64,000 bases of DNA from Tepidiformaceae bacterium (lineage in GTDB: Bacteria > Chloroflexota > Dehalococcoidia > Tepidiformales > Tepidiformaceae), in NCBI GenBank assembly GCA_958295975.1, contig OY282446.1, positions 1,093,289-1,157,288 of the forward strand, read 5' to 3'. The translations under genes were made by a program, and so were the position numbers. How positions within the stretch are numbered: position 1 is the stretch's first letter; every line of letters starts with the position of its first letter. Positions 30,910 to 51,248 of this stretch are shown one piece after another. The notes below the pieces were generated by a model that worked only from the letters and a program-made list of their open reading frames with translations, searched no databases and was not told the origin of the DNA.

Positions 30910-32872
<1,963 letters not shown>

Positions 32873-35083: not shown

Positions 35084-35557
35084 GTGCCCTACCGCGACGG
35101 CAGCCTGAAGGCGCGCGAATTCACCTTCCTCTGCGAGGACCGCATCCTGGCCGCGCTGCCGCCGGAGCTGCCCCCGCCCGAGCGCCGCGTGCGCTGGACC
35201 ATGCTGCAGCTCCACTTCGGCGACGCGCGCACGCACTTCGAGCTGCAGCCGCGCATGAAGTACGGCGTGGTGGAGGCGGGCCTGCACTTCGAGGGGCCGC
35301 CCGACGCGAACGCCGCCTGGGCGGAGCTGCTGGCCGCGCACGCCGCCGACCTGCTGGGCGAGCTGGGCCCGGCCTGGGAGCTGGAGGAGTGGACGGCCTC
35401 GTGGCGGCGGCTGCACCGCACCTTCCCCTTCGCGCGGCTCACGCCGGAGCTGGCGGGCGAGGTCTCGGCGGAGCTGGCGCGGGCCATGGCGGCGCTGCAC
35501 CCGCTGATCGTGGCGGGCGGCGGCGCGCCCCCTCCCGTGGCCCCCCGCCGCCGCTAG
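35084..35557 (+). CDS. Conserved hypothetical protein
   Basis: The 157-residue soluble protein begins VPYRDGSLKAREFTFLCED. It is mixed alpha/beta with an Arg/Glu-rich middle (RVRWTMLQLHFGDARTHFELQPRMKYGVVEAGLHFEG) and a Pro/Arg tail. The GTG start follows a TACCAT -10 by exactly 6 nt. No cofactor motif is visible and I do not recognise the family. Its stop shares CTAG with the convergent TOPRIM-like gene. Confidence 0.7.
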   Translation: MPYRDGSLKAREFTFLCEDRILAALPPELPPPERRVRWTMLQLHFGDARTHFELQPRMKYGVVEAGLHFEGPPDANAAWAELLAAHAADLLGELGPAWELEEWTASWRRLHRTFPFARLTPELAGEVSAELARAMAALHPLIVAGGGAPPPVAPRRR

Positions 35558-36141
35558 CGCGCCAACCGCGCGACCTCGCGCCAAAGCTTGTCGAACGAGC
35601 GGCAGCGCTCGCGGATTGTTTCGACGTCGACGAGCTCGGTGAGGCGGGCCTGGTCGAGTGTGGGCCGGTAGTCAAACCCGTCGCTGCGCTGGCTGCTGAG
35701 CCAGTCCTCGGCATTTGGCATGGCTTCTGGCTTCTCCACAGGGGTGATATTGTTCCGAAAATTCGGATCTCGCTCAAGGGCGGAAGTGTCGGCAATGAGC
35801 CAGTTCTCGTACTCAAGCACTGCGACGACGGCAGCGCATTTCGTATTCCCCGGCACGCTTTCCAGCCGGTTCTGAAGGGCGGGCCCAAGAATACCGGCGC
35901 AGTCCGTGTAGTCTTGATCAACGAGCACAATAATTCGTGCATCGTCCGCCGTGCTATCGAGAGCCAGTTGAGCGTAGCTCTCCAAGCGCTTCACCACATC
36001 GCCTTTCCCCTTGGGTTCGTTGATGGGATCCACCACGTCAATGCCGTCATCCAGCCCCTGTGCCTCAAGTATTCGGTTGATAAGGATGGGCAGCGCACTG
36101 ATTTCGCCGTGTCCCTCGCTGATCGGAACAATCGAAGGCAT
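35554..36141 (-). CDS. TOPRIM/DUF4276-like protein, likely effector of an ATPase pair
   Basis: The 195-residue protein has the sequence logic of a TOPRIM-like nuclease fold: a first acidic motif EGHGE (residues 9–13) after MPSIVPIS, and a DxD in VLVDQDYTDC (D75, D77). A further acidic stretch is LEYENW. This matches DUF4276-type proteins that accompany AAA ATPases in many genomes. The ATG overlaps the stop of the ATPase gene (ATGA), so the two are co-translated. Its DNA is visibly more AT-rich than its neighbours, suggesting transfer. A role as nuclease or defence effector is inference. Confidence 0.75.
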   Translation of the reverse strand: MPSIVPISEGHGEISALPILINRILEAQGLDDGIDVVDPINEPKGKGDVVKRLESYAQLALDSTADDARIIVLVDQDYTDCAGILGPALQNRLESVPGNTKCAAVVAVLEYENWLIADTSALERDPNFRNNITPVEKPEAMPNAEDWLSSQRSDGFDYRPTLDQARLTELVDVETIRERCRSFDKLWREVARLAR

Positions 36142-37343
36142 CAGAGATCGAAGAACTTAATCTGGCGACTGCTAGACACTGTGGTTTTGTCTGGAGGGAG
36201 CTTGTTGAGACGCAGGAGGTCTCCCGCTGTGAAGAGACGATCATGGAGCGCCTTGCGGGAACCTTGATCGACCCTGCCGATCACCGTGGCACCGGTCTCT
36301 GCCGACACACCCAGCAACTCGTCCGTACGCACTGCATCGAAGTGCAGGAGGTCGGTCGAGTGAGTTGTGACGATTACCTGGGTCTGCCTCTTCGCGTCTT
36401 GGAAGGCATCGATCAGGGCGGCTAGTGCTGCGGGATGGAGCGCGATCTCTGGTTCCTCGATGCCGACGAAGGTAGGGGGCGTCGAATTGTTCTGGAGGAG
36501 GGCTGTGAGGATGCCCAGCACCCGCAGCGTGCCATCCGACATGCTCGTTGCGCGGAATCGCCAAGGCTTCTTTTGTCCAGGGACTGTTTGGTTGAACTCG
36601 ATCATTTCGTGTGCACCGGGAGAAATTCGCTTGACCGAGTTAATACCAGGAACCACGGAGCCGAGGTACTGTTCGATGCGCTCCATTGTTTTAGGGTGTT
36701 GTTTCCGCAAGCTGGCGAGGACGCTCGCAAGGTTGCCGCCTTCATGCTTGAGAAAATTGTCAGGATTCGGCTTCTGAGGCTCACGGATGATGCCCGGGTT
36801 AAGGTTGTAGAATCGCATCCGAACCAGCGCGTCGTAGACAGACCAGAATGGCTCATTCGCGCTGATGGCAACTAGATAAAGCCGGTCGTGCATCACGGCA
36901 GGCATGGCCACATTGAGAGATGTTTCGACTTCCTGTGCGGTATTAGAGACACGGAAACTCGCGTGATCAGTGAGCTCCGGTCCGGCAACGATGCACTCCT
37001 CGTCCTTCACAGAGAAACCGCCAGCACTGCCGGATTCGATCTTGAAGCTGTAGTGGCCATCCGGGCCGTCCGGGATATGAAATTCGAGCCGAATCTCGAA
37101 ATTGCGGGGATGGCTGCGCGAACGGCGGCGCACCTCGCCAATGCCCCCCCGGTCGCGGAGGGCGTGGTCGAGCGTGGTGTCCAGCGCGTCGGTGACGAAG
37201 CGGATGGCATCCAGAAAATTGCTCTTGCCCGAGCCGTTGGGCCCGACGAGGAAGGCCAGGCTCCCCAGATTCACGTCGCACGCCGCGATGCTCTTGTAGT
37301 TGCTGATGCACACGCGCGTGAGGAAGGGCGGCGCGACGGTCAT
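36141..37343 (-). CDS. AAA-type (RecF/SMC-like) ATPase, defence-associated candidate
   Basis: The 400-residue ATPase is of the AAA_15/AAA_21 (COG4637-like) type. It begins LTRVCISNYKSIAACDVNLG, with Walker A GPNGSGKSN (34–42), an ABC-like signature MSDGTLRVLG (about 265), Walker B FVGIEEPEIALHP (about 295) and VIVTTHSTDLL after it. The middle is a helical insertion. It overlaps the SCP2-like gene upstream and the TOPRIM-like gene downstream by 4 bases each. Known two-gene systems with such an ATPase plus a TOPRIM partner (OLD/Gabija, PARIS) are anti-phage. Composition again points to transfer. Confidence 0.85.
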   Translation of the reverse strand: MTVAPPFLTRVCISNYKSIAACDVNLGSLAFLVGPNGSGKSNFLDAIRFVTDALDTTLDHALRDRGGIGEVRRRSRSHPRNFEIRLEFHIPDGPDGHYSFKIESGSAGGFSVKDEECIVAGPELTDHASFRVSNTAQEVETSLNVAMPAVMHDRLYLVAISANEPFWSVYDALVRMRFYNLNPGIIREPQKPNPDNFLKHEGGNLASVLASLRKQHPKTMERIEQYLGSVVPGINSVKRISPGAHEMIEFNQTVPGQKKPWRFRATSMSDGTLRVLGILTALLQNNSTPPTFVGIEEPEIALHPAALAALIDAFQDAKRQTQVIVTTHSTDLLHFDAVRTDELLGVSAETGATVIGRVDQGSRKALHDRLFTAGDLLRLNKLPPDKTTVSSSRQIKFFDL

Positions 37344-37750
37344 GCGAACGTGGTCTCCATGTCCGCGCTCATGTCGAAGTAGTCCTGGAAGGTCTGGTTG
37401 TAGCGGTAGAAGAGGTCGCGGCGCGTGTAGTCCTCGCCCGTGGCGAACTCCTCGTCGCCGCGCAGGTCGAGCGAGTTGAGCGTATGGAGGGCCTCGGCGC
37501 GACCGTTGGCGCGGATGTTTTCGAGCATGGCGCGCCAGTCGGCGGGCGGCTGCGTGAGCGTGAAATCGGGGTCGCCCGCCGCTTCGGCCACGGCGGTCAC
37601 GGCGAAGGCCGCGAAGGTGACGGTGAAGCGGCGCTCGCCCACGCGCACGCCCATGACGGCGTCGCAGCTGCCGAGCCGCGCGAAGCTGTCGGAGCGGTTG
37701 AGGCGGTCGGCGGCCTCCCGGAACCATTCGACGGAGGGGAAGACGGGCAT
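37340..37750 (-). CDS. SCP2-like lipid-binding domain protein
   Basis: The 136-residue protein starts MPVFPSVEWFREAADRLN. It has the pattern of SCP2-type sterol/lipid-carrier domains: VMGVRVGERRFTVTFAAFAVTAVAE, then DPDFTLTQPPADWRAML and a final helical part with LDLRGDEEFATGEDY. No other domain is seen. It is the first gene of a run with the AAA ATPase and TOPRIM-like genes (ATGA overlap). A TACACT -10 exactly 6 nt before the ATG gives a leaderless transcript. It may be a chance neighbour whose promoter the pair uses; its base composition is closer to the host. Confidence 0.65.
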   Translation of the reverse strand: MPVFPSVEWFREAADRLNRSDSFARLGSCDAVMGVRVGERRFTVTFAAFAVTAVAEAAGDPDFTLTQPPADWRAMLENIRANGRAEALHTLNSLDLRGDEEFATGEDYTRRDLFYRYNQTFQDYFDMSADMETTFA

Positions 37751-37756
37751 GAGGGC

Positions 37757-37826
37757 AGTGTACCTGAGGAGAGCGCCACGCTGGTGGCGCTGGCGGCGTG
37801 GGCAAGGTTTCCCGGGGGAGTAGGCT
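37757..37826. promoter_or_regulatory. Divergent leaderless promoters flanking repeat copy 3
   Basis: On the minus strand, TACACT (37762–37757) lies 6 nt before the SCP2-like ATG. On the plus strand, TAGGCT (37821–37826) lies 6 nt before the GTG of the duplicated lipoprotein. Between them is a weak third copy of the dispersed repeat. No convincing -35 elements were found. Confidence 0.55.
37766..37793. repeat. Dispersed intergenic repeat, partial diverged copy 3
   Basis: GAGGAGAGCGCC, then ACGCTGG and TGGCGCTGG, match the first part of the copies at 8467 and 18619 with several substitutions. Only about 28 bases are preserved, so this copy is less certain. Confidence 0.4.
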
Positions 37827-48676: not shown

Positions 48677-48776
48677 AGAGTATGGTTAACCCGCTCGGCG
48701 CACAGGCGTTCGCGCAAGCGGACCCAGTGCGGCGGACCATGCGTTGGTCAGCGGTAACGCGACCTGGGGAGCGGCC

Positions 48777-51248
48777 ATGGTTCCCGGCCCGGCCAAGCGC
48801 GGACGCGATTTTGCCACCGGCAAGCCGGTCGCGCTGTCCCAGCCCGAAGAGCAGGTGCGCCAGGAGTTCGAGCGCATCCTCGTCGAGAGCTACGGCTATG
48901 CCACGGATGAACTCGATATCCGCGTGCGCATCCCCCGCGGGACGGGCCAGTTCGACGACGAAGCCGATATCGTCATCTACCGCTCCGCCACGGGGCGCGA
49001 CCCCGCGCGCGACATCCTCGGCATCGTCGAGACCAAGCGCCCGGAACGCTCCGACGGCATCGCCCAGATCAAGTCGTACATGACGGCCACCTCCGCGGAT
49101 TGGGGCGTTTGGACGAATGGGGAGGACATCGCCTACCTCTGCCGTCGGGACAATCGCATCCTGGACGACTACCTCACCAACATTCCGGAGCGGGGACAGT
49201 CCACGGCGGACGTCGGGCGGCTGTCGAAAGGCGATCTTCGCCCGTTCCGGCGGCAGGAGCTGAAATCCGCGTTCTGGCGAATCCTGAATACCCTGTACGC
49301 CAACACCACCATCAGCCGTCGCGAGAAGCTCGGCAACGAGATGATCAAACTCATCTTCTGCAAAATCGAGGATGAGCGGGCGTACCGTGAGCGCACGCCA
49401 GCGTTCAGGGCCGAGGCGGGCGAGGATCCGGAGGCGGTGAAGGCGCGTGTCGACGAACTGTTTGAGCGCGTCCGCGAGCAGCTCACGCACGATGGCGTCT
49501 TCGCCGAGCACGAAACGATCACGCTCGACGCCACGTCGGTCCGCTGGGTCGTGGGGCAACTGGAGCGGGGGAGCCTGCTCGAAACCGACAGCGATGTCGT
49601 CGGGGACGCCTTCGAGGTCTTCGCGGAGTCCAAGCTCGTGGGCGAGAAGGGGGAGTTCTTCACCCCGCGGGGAGTGGTCAAAATCGCCGTGCGCCTTGCC
49701 GATCCCCAGCCGCTCGCGACGATCTGCGACCCCGCCTGCGGTTCCGGCGGATTCCTGATTCATGCGATGAAGCACATCTGGGATGCGATGGAACGCCACC
49801 CCCGCTGGCGGGGAAGTCTCGATATCGACGCCCGGAAGCGGGAGATGGCGACCCAGACCATCTATGGAATCGACAAGGAAACCGACCTCGTGCGGATTGC
49901 GAAGGCGTACATGGCCATATCCGGCGATGGCCGGAGCAATGTCGTCCACGACAATTCTCTGCACACTGCTGATAAATTCACTACTGCAGGCAAGCAGCAT
50001 TTTGTCGATGGACATTACTTCCGTAAGTTCGACTTCGTGCTAACGAACCCTCCGTTCGGCACCAAGACGAAAGTGTTGCCTGAAGACTGCAAACCCTTCG
50101 CTCTTGGTCATGTGTGGAAGAAGAGTGCTTCCGGACGTTGGGAACAAACTGCCAAAATTCCGAGCAAAGGAAAGGATCCTTATGTTCTTTTTGTCGAGCG
50201 TTGCCTCGATATGCTTCGGTCGGAAGGAGTGCTGGCCATCGTGCTTCCCGAGACTGCCTTCCATGCCCGGAGCTTGGGGTATCTTCGTCAGTTTATGTAC
50301 CAAGGGAATAGTATTTCGGCGATCATTAGTCTTCCGCACAACACCTTTCGCCCTCATAATAATGCCAAAACCTGTCTCGTTATTCTCCGTAAAGGTCAGA
50401 CTCAGCAAGAACAGATTGTCATGGCCAATCCCGTCGAAATGGGCCACGATCACCAAGGAAAGTCCATCTATCGGACCGGGACGGAAGAAGTCTGGGACGA
50501 TCTGCAAAAAATCCTTGAAGAGATCGACGCCGAGCCGAGCGACGATCATGGTTTCCTGTTTACCGTCGATGCGGACGCCATCAATCCGGATATTCTGGTT
50601 CCGGCTTACTATCAGGGATTGCTGAATGCCCCCGACCTGCCCGACGGAAGGACTGGGGTGACGCTGGGAGAACTTGTCGACGGCGGCTTCATCGAAGCCT
50701 GGGATGGGCACGGCTCCCCGCCGGCGACGGCGAAGGGGAACGGTCCGATCCCCTATATCCGCGTCTCCGACATCGTCAATTGGGAACTGTACCGCAATCC
50801 GGTCTCCGGCATTCCCGAGGAAACTTATCGGCGCATCCTCGGGAAGAAGCGCCGTCCCGAAGCCGGGGATGTCGTGTTCGTGCGTCGTGGGAGTTACCGC
50901 ATCGGAACGGTGGCGATGGCTTCGCCCCGTGATTCGGAAGTGCTGTTGACGCGGGAGCTCCTGTCGCTTCGGGTGGTCGGCGAGAATCCGTACGGCATCA
51001 CGCCGTTCTACCTGCTCTTTCTGCTTTCCTCGCAATACGTGCAGGACCAGATTCCGTGCAGGGTGTTCAGCGACACCACGCTCCCGAACCTGGACGACAG
51101 ATGGCGGGAACTGGTCCTCCCGATCCACCGGGATCGATCAGAAGCTCGGTCGGTGGGCGCCGAGGTCGAACGCGCGATTCGGAGCAAGTGGCAGGCGCAG
51201 GATCACATCGACGCTCTGCGCGAGGCGTCCGGCGGTCTCACCACGTAG
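48777..51248 (+). CDS. Single-chain restriction enzyme: nuclease, N6-adenine methylase and specificity domains
   Basis: This 823-residue protein has an N-terminal PD-(D/E)xK domain like that of HsdR (DEADIVIY, D64; GIVETKR, E85 and K87), then an HsdM-like helical part and N6-methylase (FFTPRGVV, DPACGSGG at about 319, NPPFG at about 424). The C-terminus is HsdS-like target recognition (from about 620: VTLGELVDGGF, IPYIRVSDI, AGDVVFVRRGS). It looks like a Type IIG-style enzyme derived from Type I parts, without a helicase. ATG 48777 has GGGGAG upstream. The DNA from about 49.9 to 50.6 kb is clearly AT-richer than the host, so it was probably acquired. Confidence 0.88.
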   Translation: MVPGPAKRGRDFATGKPVALSQPEEQVRQEFERILVESYGYATDELDIRVRIPRGTGQFDDEADIVIYRSATGRDPARDILGIVETKRPERSDGIAQIKSYMTATSADWGVWTNGEDIAYLCRRDNRILDDYLTNIPERGQSTADVGRLSKGDLRPFRRQELKSAFWRILNTLYANTTISRREKLGNEMIKLIFCKIEDERAYRERTPAFRAEAGEDPEAVKARVDELFERVREQLTHDGVFAEHETITLDATSVRWVVGQLERGSLLETDSDVVGDAFEVFAESKLVGEKGEFFTPRGVVKIAVRLADPQPLATICDPACGSGGFLIHAMKHIWDAMERHPRWRGSLDIDARKREMATQTIYGIDKETDLVRIAKAYMAISGDGRSNVVHDNSLHTADKFTTAGKQHFVDGHYFRKFDFVLTNPPFGTKTKVLPEDCKPFALGHVWKKSASGRWEQTAKIPSKGKDPYVLFVERCLDMLRSEGVLAIVLPETAFHARSLGYLRQFMYQGNSISAIISLPHNTFRPHNNAKTCLVILRKGQTQQEQIVMANPVEMGHDHQGKSIYRTGTEEVWDDLQKILEEIDAEPSDDHGFLFTVDADAINPDILVPAYYQGLLNAPDLPDGRTGVTLGELVDGGFIEAWDGHGSPPATAKGNGPIPYIRVSDIVNWELYRNPVSGIPEETYRRILGKKRRPEAGDVVFVRRGSYRIGTVAMASPRDSEVLLTRELLSLRVVGENPYGITPFYLLFLLSSQYVQDQIPCRVFSDTTLPNLDDRWRELVLPIHRDRSEARSVGAEVERAIRSKWQAQDHIDALREASGGLTT

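What the first reader, a model, noticed from the sequence alone, without database searches (positions are those of the whole stretch)
35554..37750. Three-gene leaderless unit SCP2-like + AAA ATPase + TOPRIM/DUF4276-like: candidate defence system
Three minus-strand genes are chained by two ATGA overlaps and driven by a TACACT box 6 nt before the first ATG. The ATPase (RecF/SMC-like, GPNGSGKSN, EEPE Walker B) and the small protein with EGHGE and DQD motifs look like the two-component ATPase plus TOPRIM nuclease arrangement of OLD/Gabija or PARIS, but neither protein is an obvious member of those systems. A lipid-carrier SCP2-like protein as first gene is odd. The ATPase and TOPRIM-like genes are AT-richer than the flanking DNA.
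Basis: partly seen in the sequence, partly recalled or inferred. Interest (0 to 1): 0.75.

Follow-up and report, generated by a model that had tools for sequence, protein, structure and literature searches.

The report
HEC-01 defence pair behind resident gene
Two of the three genes are a known type of candidate anti-virus pair (an ATPase plus a small probable nuclease) that was acquired from elsewhere and slotted directly behind an ordinary resident gene, whose start-up signal it appears to borrow.

Summary
The three minus-strand genes are real. The ATPase (36141-37343) and the 195-residue protein (35554-36141) match PADLOC's candidate system HEC-01 (E=1.7e-153 and 1.1e-42); the small protein is DUF4276. 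Its model (pLDDT 94) has TOPRIM-like strand order, and its best aligned solved structures are OLD-family TOPRIM domains (Z 8.6-9.2). So: a new member of a known kind.

The 'SCP2-like' first gene is not part of it: it is in 34 of 38 family genomes, stands before an empty site in all 8 other held genomes of the genus, has no protein match in 90 HEC-01 loci, and does not pass Pfam's SCP2 cut-off. The pair is an AT-rich insertion (GC 0.590 against 0.737) fitted to that gene's stop codon (ATGA).

Unexpected: the two other HEC-01 copies found in the genus lie elsewhere, yet begin with a shrunken remnant of the same resident gene: its TACACT leaderless start joined to its end. HEC-01 here seems to travel with a captured host leader. 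Anti-phage function remains inferred; in Poribacteria the pair sits among metabolic genes.

The parts
36141..37343 (-). HEC-01A: OLD/RecF/SMC-type ABC ATPase, 400 aa (Walker A GPNGSGKSN, signature SDGTLR, Walker B EEPE, H-loop THS)
   Evidence: PADLOC HEC-01A E=1.7e-153; G34, N36, G39, K40, S41, SDGTLR and EEP invariant in 52 of 52; model pLDDT 93.9, Foldseek best to PtuA (retron, Septu), SMC and Rad50 heads
35554..36141 (-). HEC-01B: DUF4276 TOPRIM-like putative nuclease, 195 aa
   Evidence: Pfam DUF4276 E=2.4e-16; PADLOC HEC-01B E=1.1e-42; E9 and D75 invariant in 62 of 62, position 77 D or E in 61 of 62; model pLDDT 94.1, best aligned to OLD TOPRIM domains
37340..37750 (-).
   Evidence: 34 of 38 family genomes; protein match in 0 of 90 HEC-01 loci; Pfam SCP2 below cut-off
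37757..37762 (-). TACACT -10-like box of a leaderless start, 6 nt before the resident gene's ATG; inferred to drive the whole unit
   Evidence: kept in 9 of 9 held genomes of the genus and in both HEC-01 leader remnants
37340..37343 (-). ATGA overlap (resident gene stop / ATPase start): left edge of the insertion
   Evidence: sequence; the 8 relatives have a stop (TAG, TGA or TAA) here and no ATPase
36141..36141 (-). TGATG junction, 1-nt overlap of ATPase stop and DUF4276 start
   Evidence: sequence
35084..35557 (+). Convergent resident gene of unknown function; its 3' end marks the right edge of the insertion
   Evidence: its matched end lies 53-108 bp beyond the resident 136-aa gene in 8 of 8 other held genomes of the genus; no Pfam match at E <= 0.1

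Best explanation
It is a HEC-01 module: an OLD-type ABC ATPase (HEC-01A) with a DUF4276 TOPRIM-like putative nuclease (HEC-01B), gained horizontally and fitted behind the stop codon of a resident leaderless gene. Most likely working (inferred): the pair is transcribed from the resident gene's TACACT promoter and translated by coupling through ATGA and TGATG; the ATPase, in the manner of AriA of PARIS, holds the TOPRIM protein in check and releases or activates it when it senses a phage-related trigger; the TOPRIM protein then cuts nucleic acid (DNA, or tRNA as AriB does) with metal ions held by E9, D75 and D77, stopping phage growth, perhaps with the cell. Shown here: gene pair, family, modelled fold, intact motifs, insertion, overlap architecture. 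Inferred: promoter use, coupling, complex, trigger, substrate, defence.
For: PADLOC and Pfam matches; 62 of 62 scanned DUF4276 proteins match HEC-01B models. DUF4276 directly downstream of the ATPase in 73 of 90 loci, 58 of the 73 at -4 to +4 nt, in many phyla. TOPRIM-like model aligned best to OLD C-terminal domains 6nk8, 6njx, 6njw, 6njv (160-167 residues) and also to PARIS 8ux9 chain A; catalytic and Walker residues kept. Insertion: empty junction in 8 of 8 other held genomes of the genus, ATPase in 3 of 38 family genomes, own included, GC 0.590 against 0.737. Defence-like neighbours in some places: DrmA/DrmB beside L054 and L066, which are near-identical; a Streptomyces plasmid pair followed by an ATPase and a helicase gene, annotation only.
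Against: No phage test exists here. The matched neighbourhood test was inconclusive: 129 neighbours of 12 HEC-01 loci hit 138 PADLOC families, 121 control proteins of the same 12 genomes hit 155. In Poribacteria the pair sits between PhyH and sulfatase genes with host-like GC. Foldseek alone gave no TOPRIM row in its top 50 and nothing at E <= 0.001 for the small protein; VIA Z of 8.6-9.2 is only slightly above unrelated rows (up to 8.2), though those cover 101-128 residues, and PARIS at Z 7.2 is in the range that may mean only a common arrangement. 17 of 90 loci lacked an adjacent DUF4276 at the threshold.
Confidence: 0.65

Rival explanations
1. The pair has a cell-maintenance role (DNA repair or RNA processing), or has been domesticated, rather than anti-phage defence.
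For: The 24 Poribacteria loci form one clade; 21 of 24 have PhyH upstream and 20 of 24 a sulfatase downstream, on the same strand; GC is host-like (mean difference +0.015 in 23 loci). In the window both flanking genes are resident ones shared with relatives, and the 136-aa one hits 0 PADLOC families.
Against: Patchy presence (3 of 38 family genomes at E <= 1e-20; 8 of 400 genomes of the phylum at E <= 1e-40; own included in both); AT-rich insertion; HEC systems were catalogued because they are embedded in a defence system (passages of PMC12988326); phyla are partly mixed on the ATPase tree (20 label changes, at least 11 possible), which is no proof of transfer.
Confidence: 0.2
2. The three genes form one three-component defence system in which the 136-aa protein (SCP2-like) is a sensor or membrane part.
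For: ATGA overlap with the ATPase; both other HEC-01 copies found in the genus carry a remnant of this gene as a leader.
Against: 31 of 38 family genomes have the 136-aa gene and no ATPase match, and in G029 and G035 the intact gene lies apart from HEC-01; 0 of 90 HEC-01 loci have it as a protein match; in front of HEC-01 in G029 and G035 most of the gene is gone while the ATPase is kept (the DUF4276 ORF of G035 is shortened).
Confidence: 0.04
3. The pair acts as a toxin-antitoxin-like or addiction unit, with the TOPRIM protein toxic and the ATPase restraining it, kept mainly by selfish stability.
For: Compact two-gene overlapping unit found in different places in the genus; a Streptomyces plasmid copy. 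In PARIS a TOPRIM nuclease that cuts host tRNA is activated by the ATPase (abstract of PMC12409363; passages of PMC12839542).
Against: An ABC ATPase partner fits triggered immunity better; only 1 of 72,556 plasmid records matched the ATPase at E <= 1e-40.
Confidence: 0.11

Closest known systems
HEC-01 (PADLOC-DB 2.0.0; Hma-embedded candidates, Payne et al. 2024 preprint as cited in PMC12988326; preprint not read)
   Same: Both genes, their order and the best HMM matches (HEC-01A PDLC04178, HEC-01B PDLC04196).
   Different: Here it stands behind a resident leaderless gene whose start it seems to share, between two resident genes.
PARIS (AriA/AriB)
   Same: Separate OLD-type ABC ATPase and TOPRIM genes; an AriA model matches at E=2.1e-32; PARIS chain 8ux9_A aligns to the DUF4276 model at Z 7.2 over 164 residues (that chain A is AriB is my reading).
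   Different: HEC-01A fits far better (1.7e-153); no AriB model among the matches; DUF4276 instead of the AriB family (AriB as DUF4435 is recalled).
OLD nucleases / Gabija GajA
   Same: Same two kinds of domain, ATPase then TOPRIM; OLD C-terminal domains are the best aligned structures.
   Different: Two separate proteins here; no helicase gene directly beside the pair.
MADS MAD3/MAD4
   Same: MAD3 is a related ATPase (NCBIfam 106.1 bits), MAD4 faintly like DUF4276 (12.7 bits, E=0.099).
   Different: Both far below the family cut-offs (420 and 160 bits).

Membership tests
HEC-01 | HEC-01A-type ATPase | tested here: met
   PDLC04178 E=1.7e-153 over residues 4-396
HEC-01 | HEC-01B (DUF4276) protein next to it | tested here: met
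   PDLC04196 E=1.1e-42 over residues 1-194; 1-nt overlap with the ATPase
HEC-01 | Embedded in or beside another defence system (the way the HEC group was found, per passages of PMC12988326) | tested here: inconclusive
   Both flanking genes are resident genes shared with relatives; not every ORF of the window was scanned; an HsdM-like gene lies 11 kb away
HEC-01 | Anti-phage activity | not testable with these tools
   needs phage assays
PARIS | AriA plus AriB | tested here: not met
   AriA-like at E=2.1e-32 but HEC-01A far better; no AriB model among the 14 PADLOC matches of P0001 at E <= 1
Gabija | GajA (ATPase-TOPRIM fusion) with GajB helicase | tested here: not met
   Separate proteins; the direct neighbours are the 136-aa gene and the convergent 157-aa gene
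OLD (class 1) | ATPase and TOPRIM in one polypeptide | tested here: not met
   two ORFs, 400 and 195 aa
TOPRIM fold | alternating strand-helix fold with Glu after the first strand and D-x-D after the third (motif recalled) | tested here: met
   In the model: strand 3-8 then E9; second strand very short (two-residue bridges at 35-36 and 40-41); strand 68-75 ending at D75, with D77. OLD TOPRIM rows are the top four by VIA, at modest Z; Foldseek alone does not show it
MADS | MAD3 and MAD4 above cut-off | tested here: not met
   106.1 of 420 and 12.7 of 160 bits
SCP2 (first gene) | Pfam PF02036 above cut-off | tested here: not met
   14.2 of 21.3 bits; 0 of 4 homologues match at E <= 0.1; fold not tested

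The most novel reading that the evidence does not exclude
In this genus HEC-01 is a roughly 1.85-kb mobile cassette that carries a captured host leader: the leaderless start of the resident 136-aa gene. In the window the resident gene is whole and overlaps the ATPase by ATGA; in G029 and G035 the cassette lies elsewhere, and the resident gene is cut down to its TACACT box, start and first few codons joined to its end (last 11 or so codons in G029), in G029 an 18-codon mini-ORF that still overlaps the ATPase by ATGA. A defence module would thus solve the problem of expression in a leaderless-transcribing host by piggy-backing on a resident gene's start and then moving with it; translation of the mini-ORF might even regulate it.
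Probability: 0.5. Interest if true: 0.5.

Novelty: new member of a known kind. Interest (0 to 1): 0.38.

Why it matters
It corrects a three-gene reading to a known two-gene candidate, adds a modelled-fold link of DUF4276 to OLD-type TOPRIM nucleases, and gives a clean natural case (8 empty sites, one filled, two copies elsewhere with a shrunken host leader) of how a defence module may borrow a host gene's leaderless start. HEC-01's trigger and substrate are unknown to me, and the Poribacteria copies raise the question whether all HEC-01 pairs are defence.

Tried and rejected
Rejected: the trio as one system; the first gene as SCP2; membership in PARIS, Gabija, OLD or MADS. A mosaic origin of the GC-rich ATPase 5' end was considered: residues 1-62 are 0.72 and 0.70 identical to G035 and G029, but a median 0.66 to all 89 relatives against 0.47 for the rest, so the high N-terminal identity is ordinary P-loop conservation; the high third-position GC at both ends of the insert is not explained. 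Foldseek against the PDB for DUF4276 gave only common alpha/beta folds, lumazine synthases first, none at E <= 0.001; the TOPRIM link rests on VIA-align, strand order and motifs. Profile search of DUF4276 against solved chains: 0 matches at E <= 1. The defence-neighbourhood test with control was inconclusive: the control stretches hit Cas10, type I RM, AbiEii and Cas12f models (the last probably TnpB, my reading). Paper searches: 'DUF4276' 0 papers; 'HEC-01' with 'PADLOC' 0; 'Hma-embedded' with 'PADLOC' 1; the MADS search listed unrelated papers; HEC-01/05/06, 29 papers of which 20 listed, mostly unrelated; TOPRIM/PARIS 18; guilt-by-embedding, 10 listed. Papers: passages of PMC12988326, PMC10568477, PMC12839542 and PMC10855318, abstract and outline of PMC12409363. 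The founding HEC preprint is not held and was not read, so whether HEC-01 itself was tested there is unknown to me.

Rows dropped before counts: the relatives scan kept the best 80 of 148 loci, to which 8 loci of the phylum search and 2 of the genus were added (90 in all; some hold little flank). A3 used 61 of 69 length-filtered DUF4276 relatives (of 78 hits) plus P0001; A4 used 51 of 89 ATPase ORFs plus P0002. The neighbour sets came from 12 of the 90 loci; test set A5 held all 129 called ORFs; control set A7 held 121 of 130 called ORFs: 8 were left out when A6 was made (two very long ones and six of the last stretch) and one more for the residue limit. One search also ran an iterated DUF4276 profile that drew in shadow ORFs; I did not use its counts.
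Full report
What is there. Three intact minus-strand ORFs: 136 aa (37340-37750), 400 aa (36141-37343) and 195 aa (35554-36141). The first junction is an ATGA overlap; the second is TGATG, a 1-nt overlap, not ATGA. TACACT lies 6 nt before the first ATG.

What the proteins are. The 195-aa protein is DUF4276 (Pfam E=2.4e-16, above its cut-off) and HEC-01B in PADLOC (E=1.1e-42); the 400-aa protein is HEC-01A (E=1.7e-153), far ahead of, among others, AriA (2.1e-32), MAD3 (1.8e-28), OLD (3e-21) and GajA (1.1e-17) models. NCBIfam puts MAD3 and MAD4 far below cut-off. All 62 members of a DUF4276 alignment match HEC-01B models. HEC stands for Hma-embedded candidates; PMC12988326 (passages) says that several, naming HEC-06, have shown antiviral activity and credits a 2024 preprint that I could not read.

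Fold. The DUF4276 model (pLDDT 94.1, pTM 0.91) runs strand 3-8, E9, helix 11-27, a very short strand (two-residue bridges near 35-41), helix 48-63, strand 68-75 ending at D75 with D77 after it, helix 82-94, strand 101-107: TOPRIM order (the TOPRIM motif itself is recalled). E9 and D75 are invariant in 62 of 62; position 77 is D or E in 61 of 62; E112, W114 and Y158 are also invariant. Foldseek found nothing at E <= 0.001. VIA-align of Foldseek's 1000 best chains puts four OLD C-terminal entries first (Z 8.6-9.2, 160-167 aligned residues) and lists PARIS 8ux9_A at Z 7.2 over 164 residues; the other listed rows reach Z 8.2 but cover 101-128 residues. The tool warns that Z under 8 may mean only a common arrangement. 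I read this as OLD-type TOPRIM, with moderate strength. The ATPase model (pLDDT 93.9) resembles PtuA, SMC and Rad50 heads, and its Walker, signature and H-loop residues are kept.

A pair, not a trio. In 90 loci (80 named, 8 of the phylum, 2 of the genus) a DUF4276 ORF lies directly downstream of the ATPase in 73, 58 of them at -4 to +4 nt; in 4 of the other 17 (L028, L077, L081, L087) a DUF4276 ORF is present at another spacing, and L098 ends 188 bases after the ATPase. In the DNA held, none of the 90 loci has a protein match to the 136-aa gene at E <= 1e-3. That gene is in 34 of 38 family genomes, the ATPase (E <= 1e-20) in 3 of 38, own included. In all 8 other held genomes of the genus the 136-aa gene is followed, 53-108 bp on, by the same convergent gene that lies beyond DUF4276 in the window: the empty site. 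The label SCP2 is not supported.

Foreign origin. The pair has GC 0.590 against 0.737 elsewhere in the window, with third-position GC near 0.71 against 0.94 in the resident gene; but both outer ends of the insert have host-like third positions, which I cannot explain. In 47 non-Poribacterial loci with enough flank the pair is on average 0.037 poorer in GC than its flanks; 26 of 47 are poorer by more than 0.03 and 2 of 47 richer by more than 0.03. The ATPase tree (quick method) mixes phyla in places (20 label changes, at least 11 possible, shuffled mean 49.5), which suggests but does not prove transfer.

The captured leader. G029 and G035, the only other holders found in the genus, carry HEC-01 in other places while keeping an intact 136-aa gene with an empty site. 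Directly before their ATPase lies TACACT, 6 nt, ATG. In G029 the remnant aligns to its own genome's 136-aa gene in two abutting pieces, the 5' region (41 columns) and the 3' end (32 columns); 0 of 1000 shuffles reach either score. Read by eye it gives 18 codons that overlap the ATPase by ATGA. In G035 the 5' piece is clear (0 of 1000), but the 3' piece is weak against its own gene (71 of 1000) though not against G029's gene (0 of 1000), and by eye the mini-ORF stops early. Against the window's gene the scores are weaker: 5' 18 and 2 of 1000, 3' 0 and 10 of 1000 for G029 and G035 (shuffles keep base composition only). A pattern for the remnant, 3 mismatches allowed, occurs once each in G029 and G035 and in none of the other 7 genomes of the genus. 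The DNA shared by the two copies (86% over 1850 columns) starts about 100 bases before the ATPase start, and the flanks next to it do not match; a separate block (70% over 998 columns) lies behind the copy in G029 but in front of it in G035. The three genus ATPases form one branch (99). So HEC-01 in this genus is tied to this gene's start in 3 of 3 copies found. Whether capture came first and movement later, or a cassette with a leader recombined back into the resident gene, is open.

Is it defence? [quoted passage not shown] passages of PMC12839542, abstract of PMC12409363), patchy spread, DISARM-type genes next to L054 and L066 (PADLOC tally, placed), a Streptomyces plasmid pair followed by an ATPase and a helicase gene. 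Against: a matched neighbour scan was inconclusive (138 PADLOC families hit by 129 neighbours, 155 by 121 control proteins), and in Poribacteria 21 of 24 loci have PhyH upstream and 20 of 24 a sulfatase downstream, with host-like GC in 23 loci and a single clade. I therefore give defence good but not overwhelming odds.

Verdict. A well-preserved HEC-01 pair: a new member of a known candidate kind. The new point is the borrowed leaderless leader.

Noticed in passing
48744-51248 (+): Second AT-rich block: an 834-aa protein with a type I restriction R N-terminus and an N-6 DNA methylase (Pfam; PADLOC MTase_I E=3.4e-70); in 2 of 38 family genomes at E <= 1e-60, own included, the other match only 36% identical and partial.
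   Followed up: partly
L043, L048-L052, L057, L067, L072, L075, L077, L078, L082-L084, L087, L088, L094, L098, L099, L107: In these 21 of 24 Poribacteria loci HEC-01 lies behind a PhyH gene, with a sulfatase behind it in 20 and an ABC-transporter gene further upstream in 12; GC is host-like; L077, L087 and L094 carry two ATPase ORFs.
   Followed up: partly
L054 and L066: Near-identical Thermoanaerobaculia loci with HEC-01 directly before DISARM-type DrmA/DrmB genes; L066 has DUF4276 between them, L054 has no match for it. ORFs like L054's DrmA also occur in L070 and L096.
   Followed up: partly
L025 (G000:C1:1510913-1511905): A second, distant relative of the ATPase (29% identity, E=5.8e-24) elsewhere in the same genome.
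   Followed up: no
L023, 572-1078: The DUF4276 ORF of G035 is shorter (168 aa) than that of G029 (192 aa) and its C-terminal end differs, so it may be broken.
   Followed up: no
MT835995.1, 21132-22271: An unannotated 23-kb phage record from human faeces encodes an ATPase 45% identical to this one near its end, the only match among 50,697 phage records at E <= 1e-15.
   Followed up: no
31264-32475: Matches GroEL genes at about 77% DNA identity.
   Followed up: no
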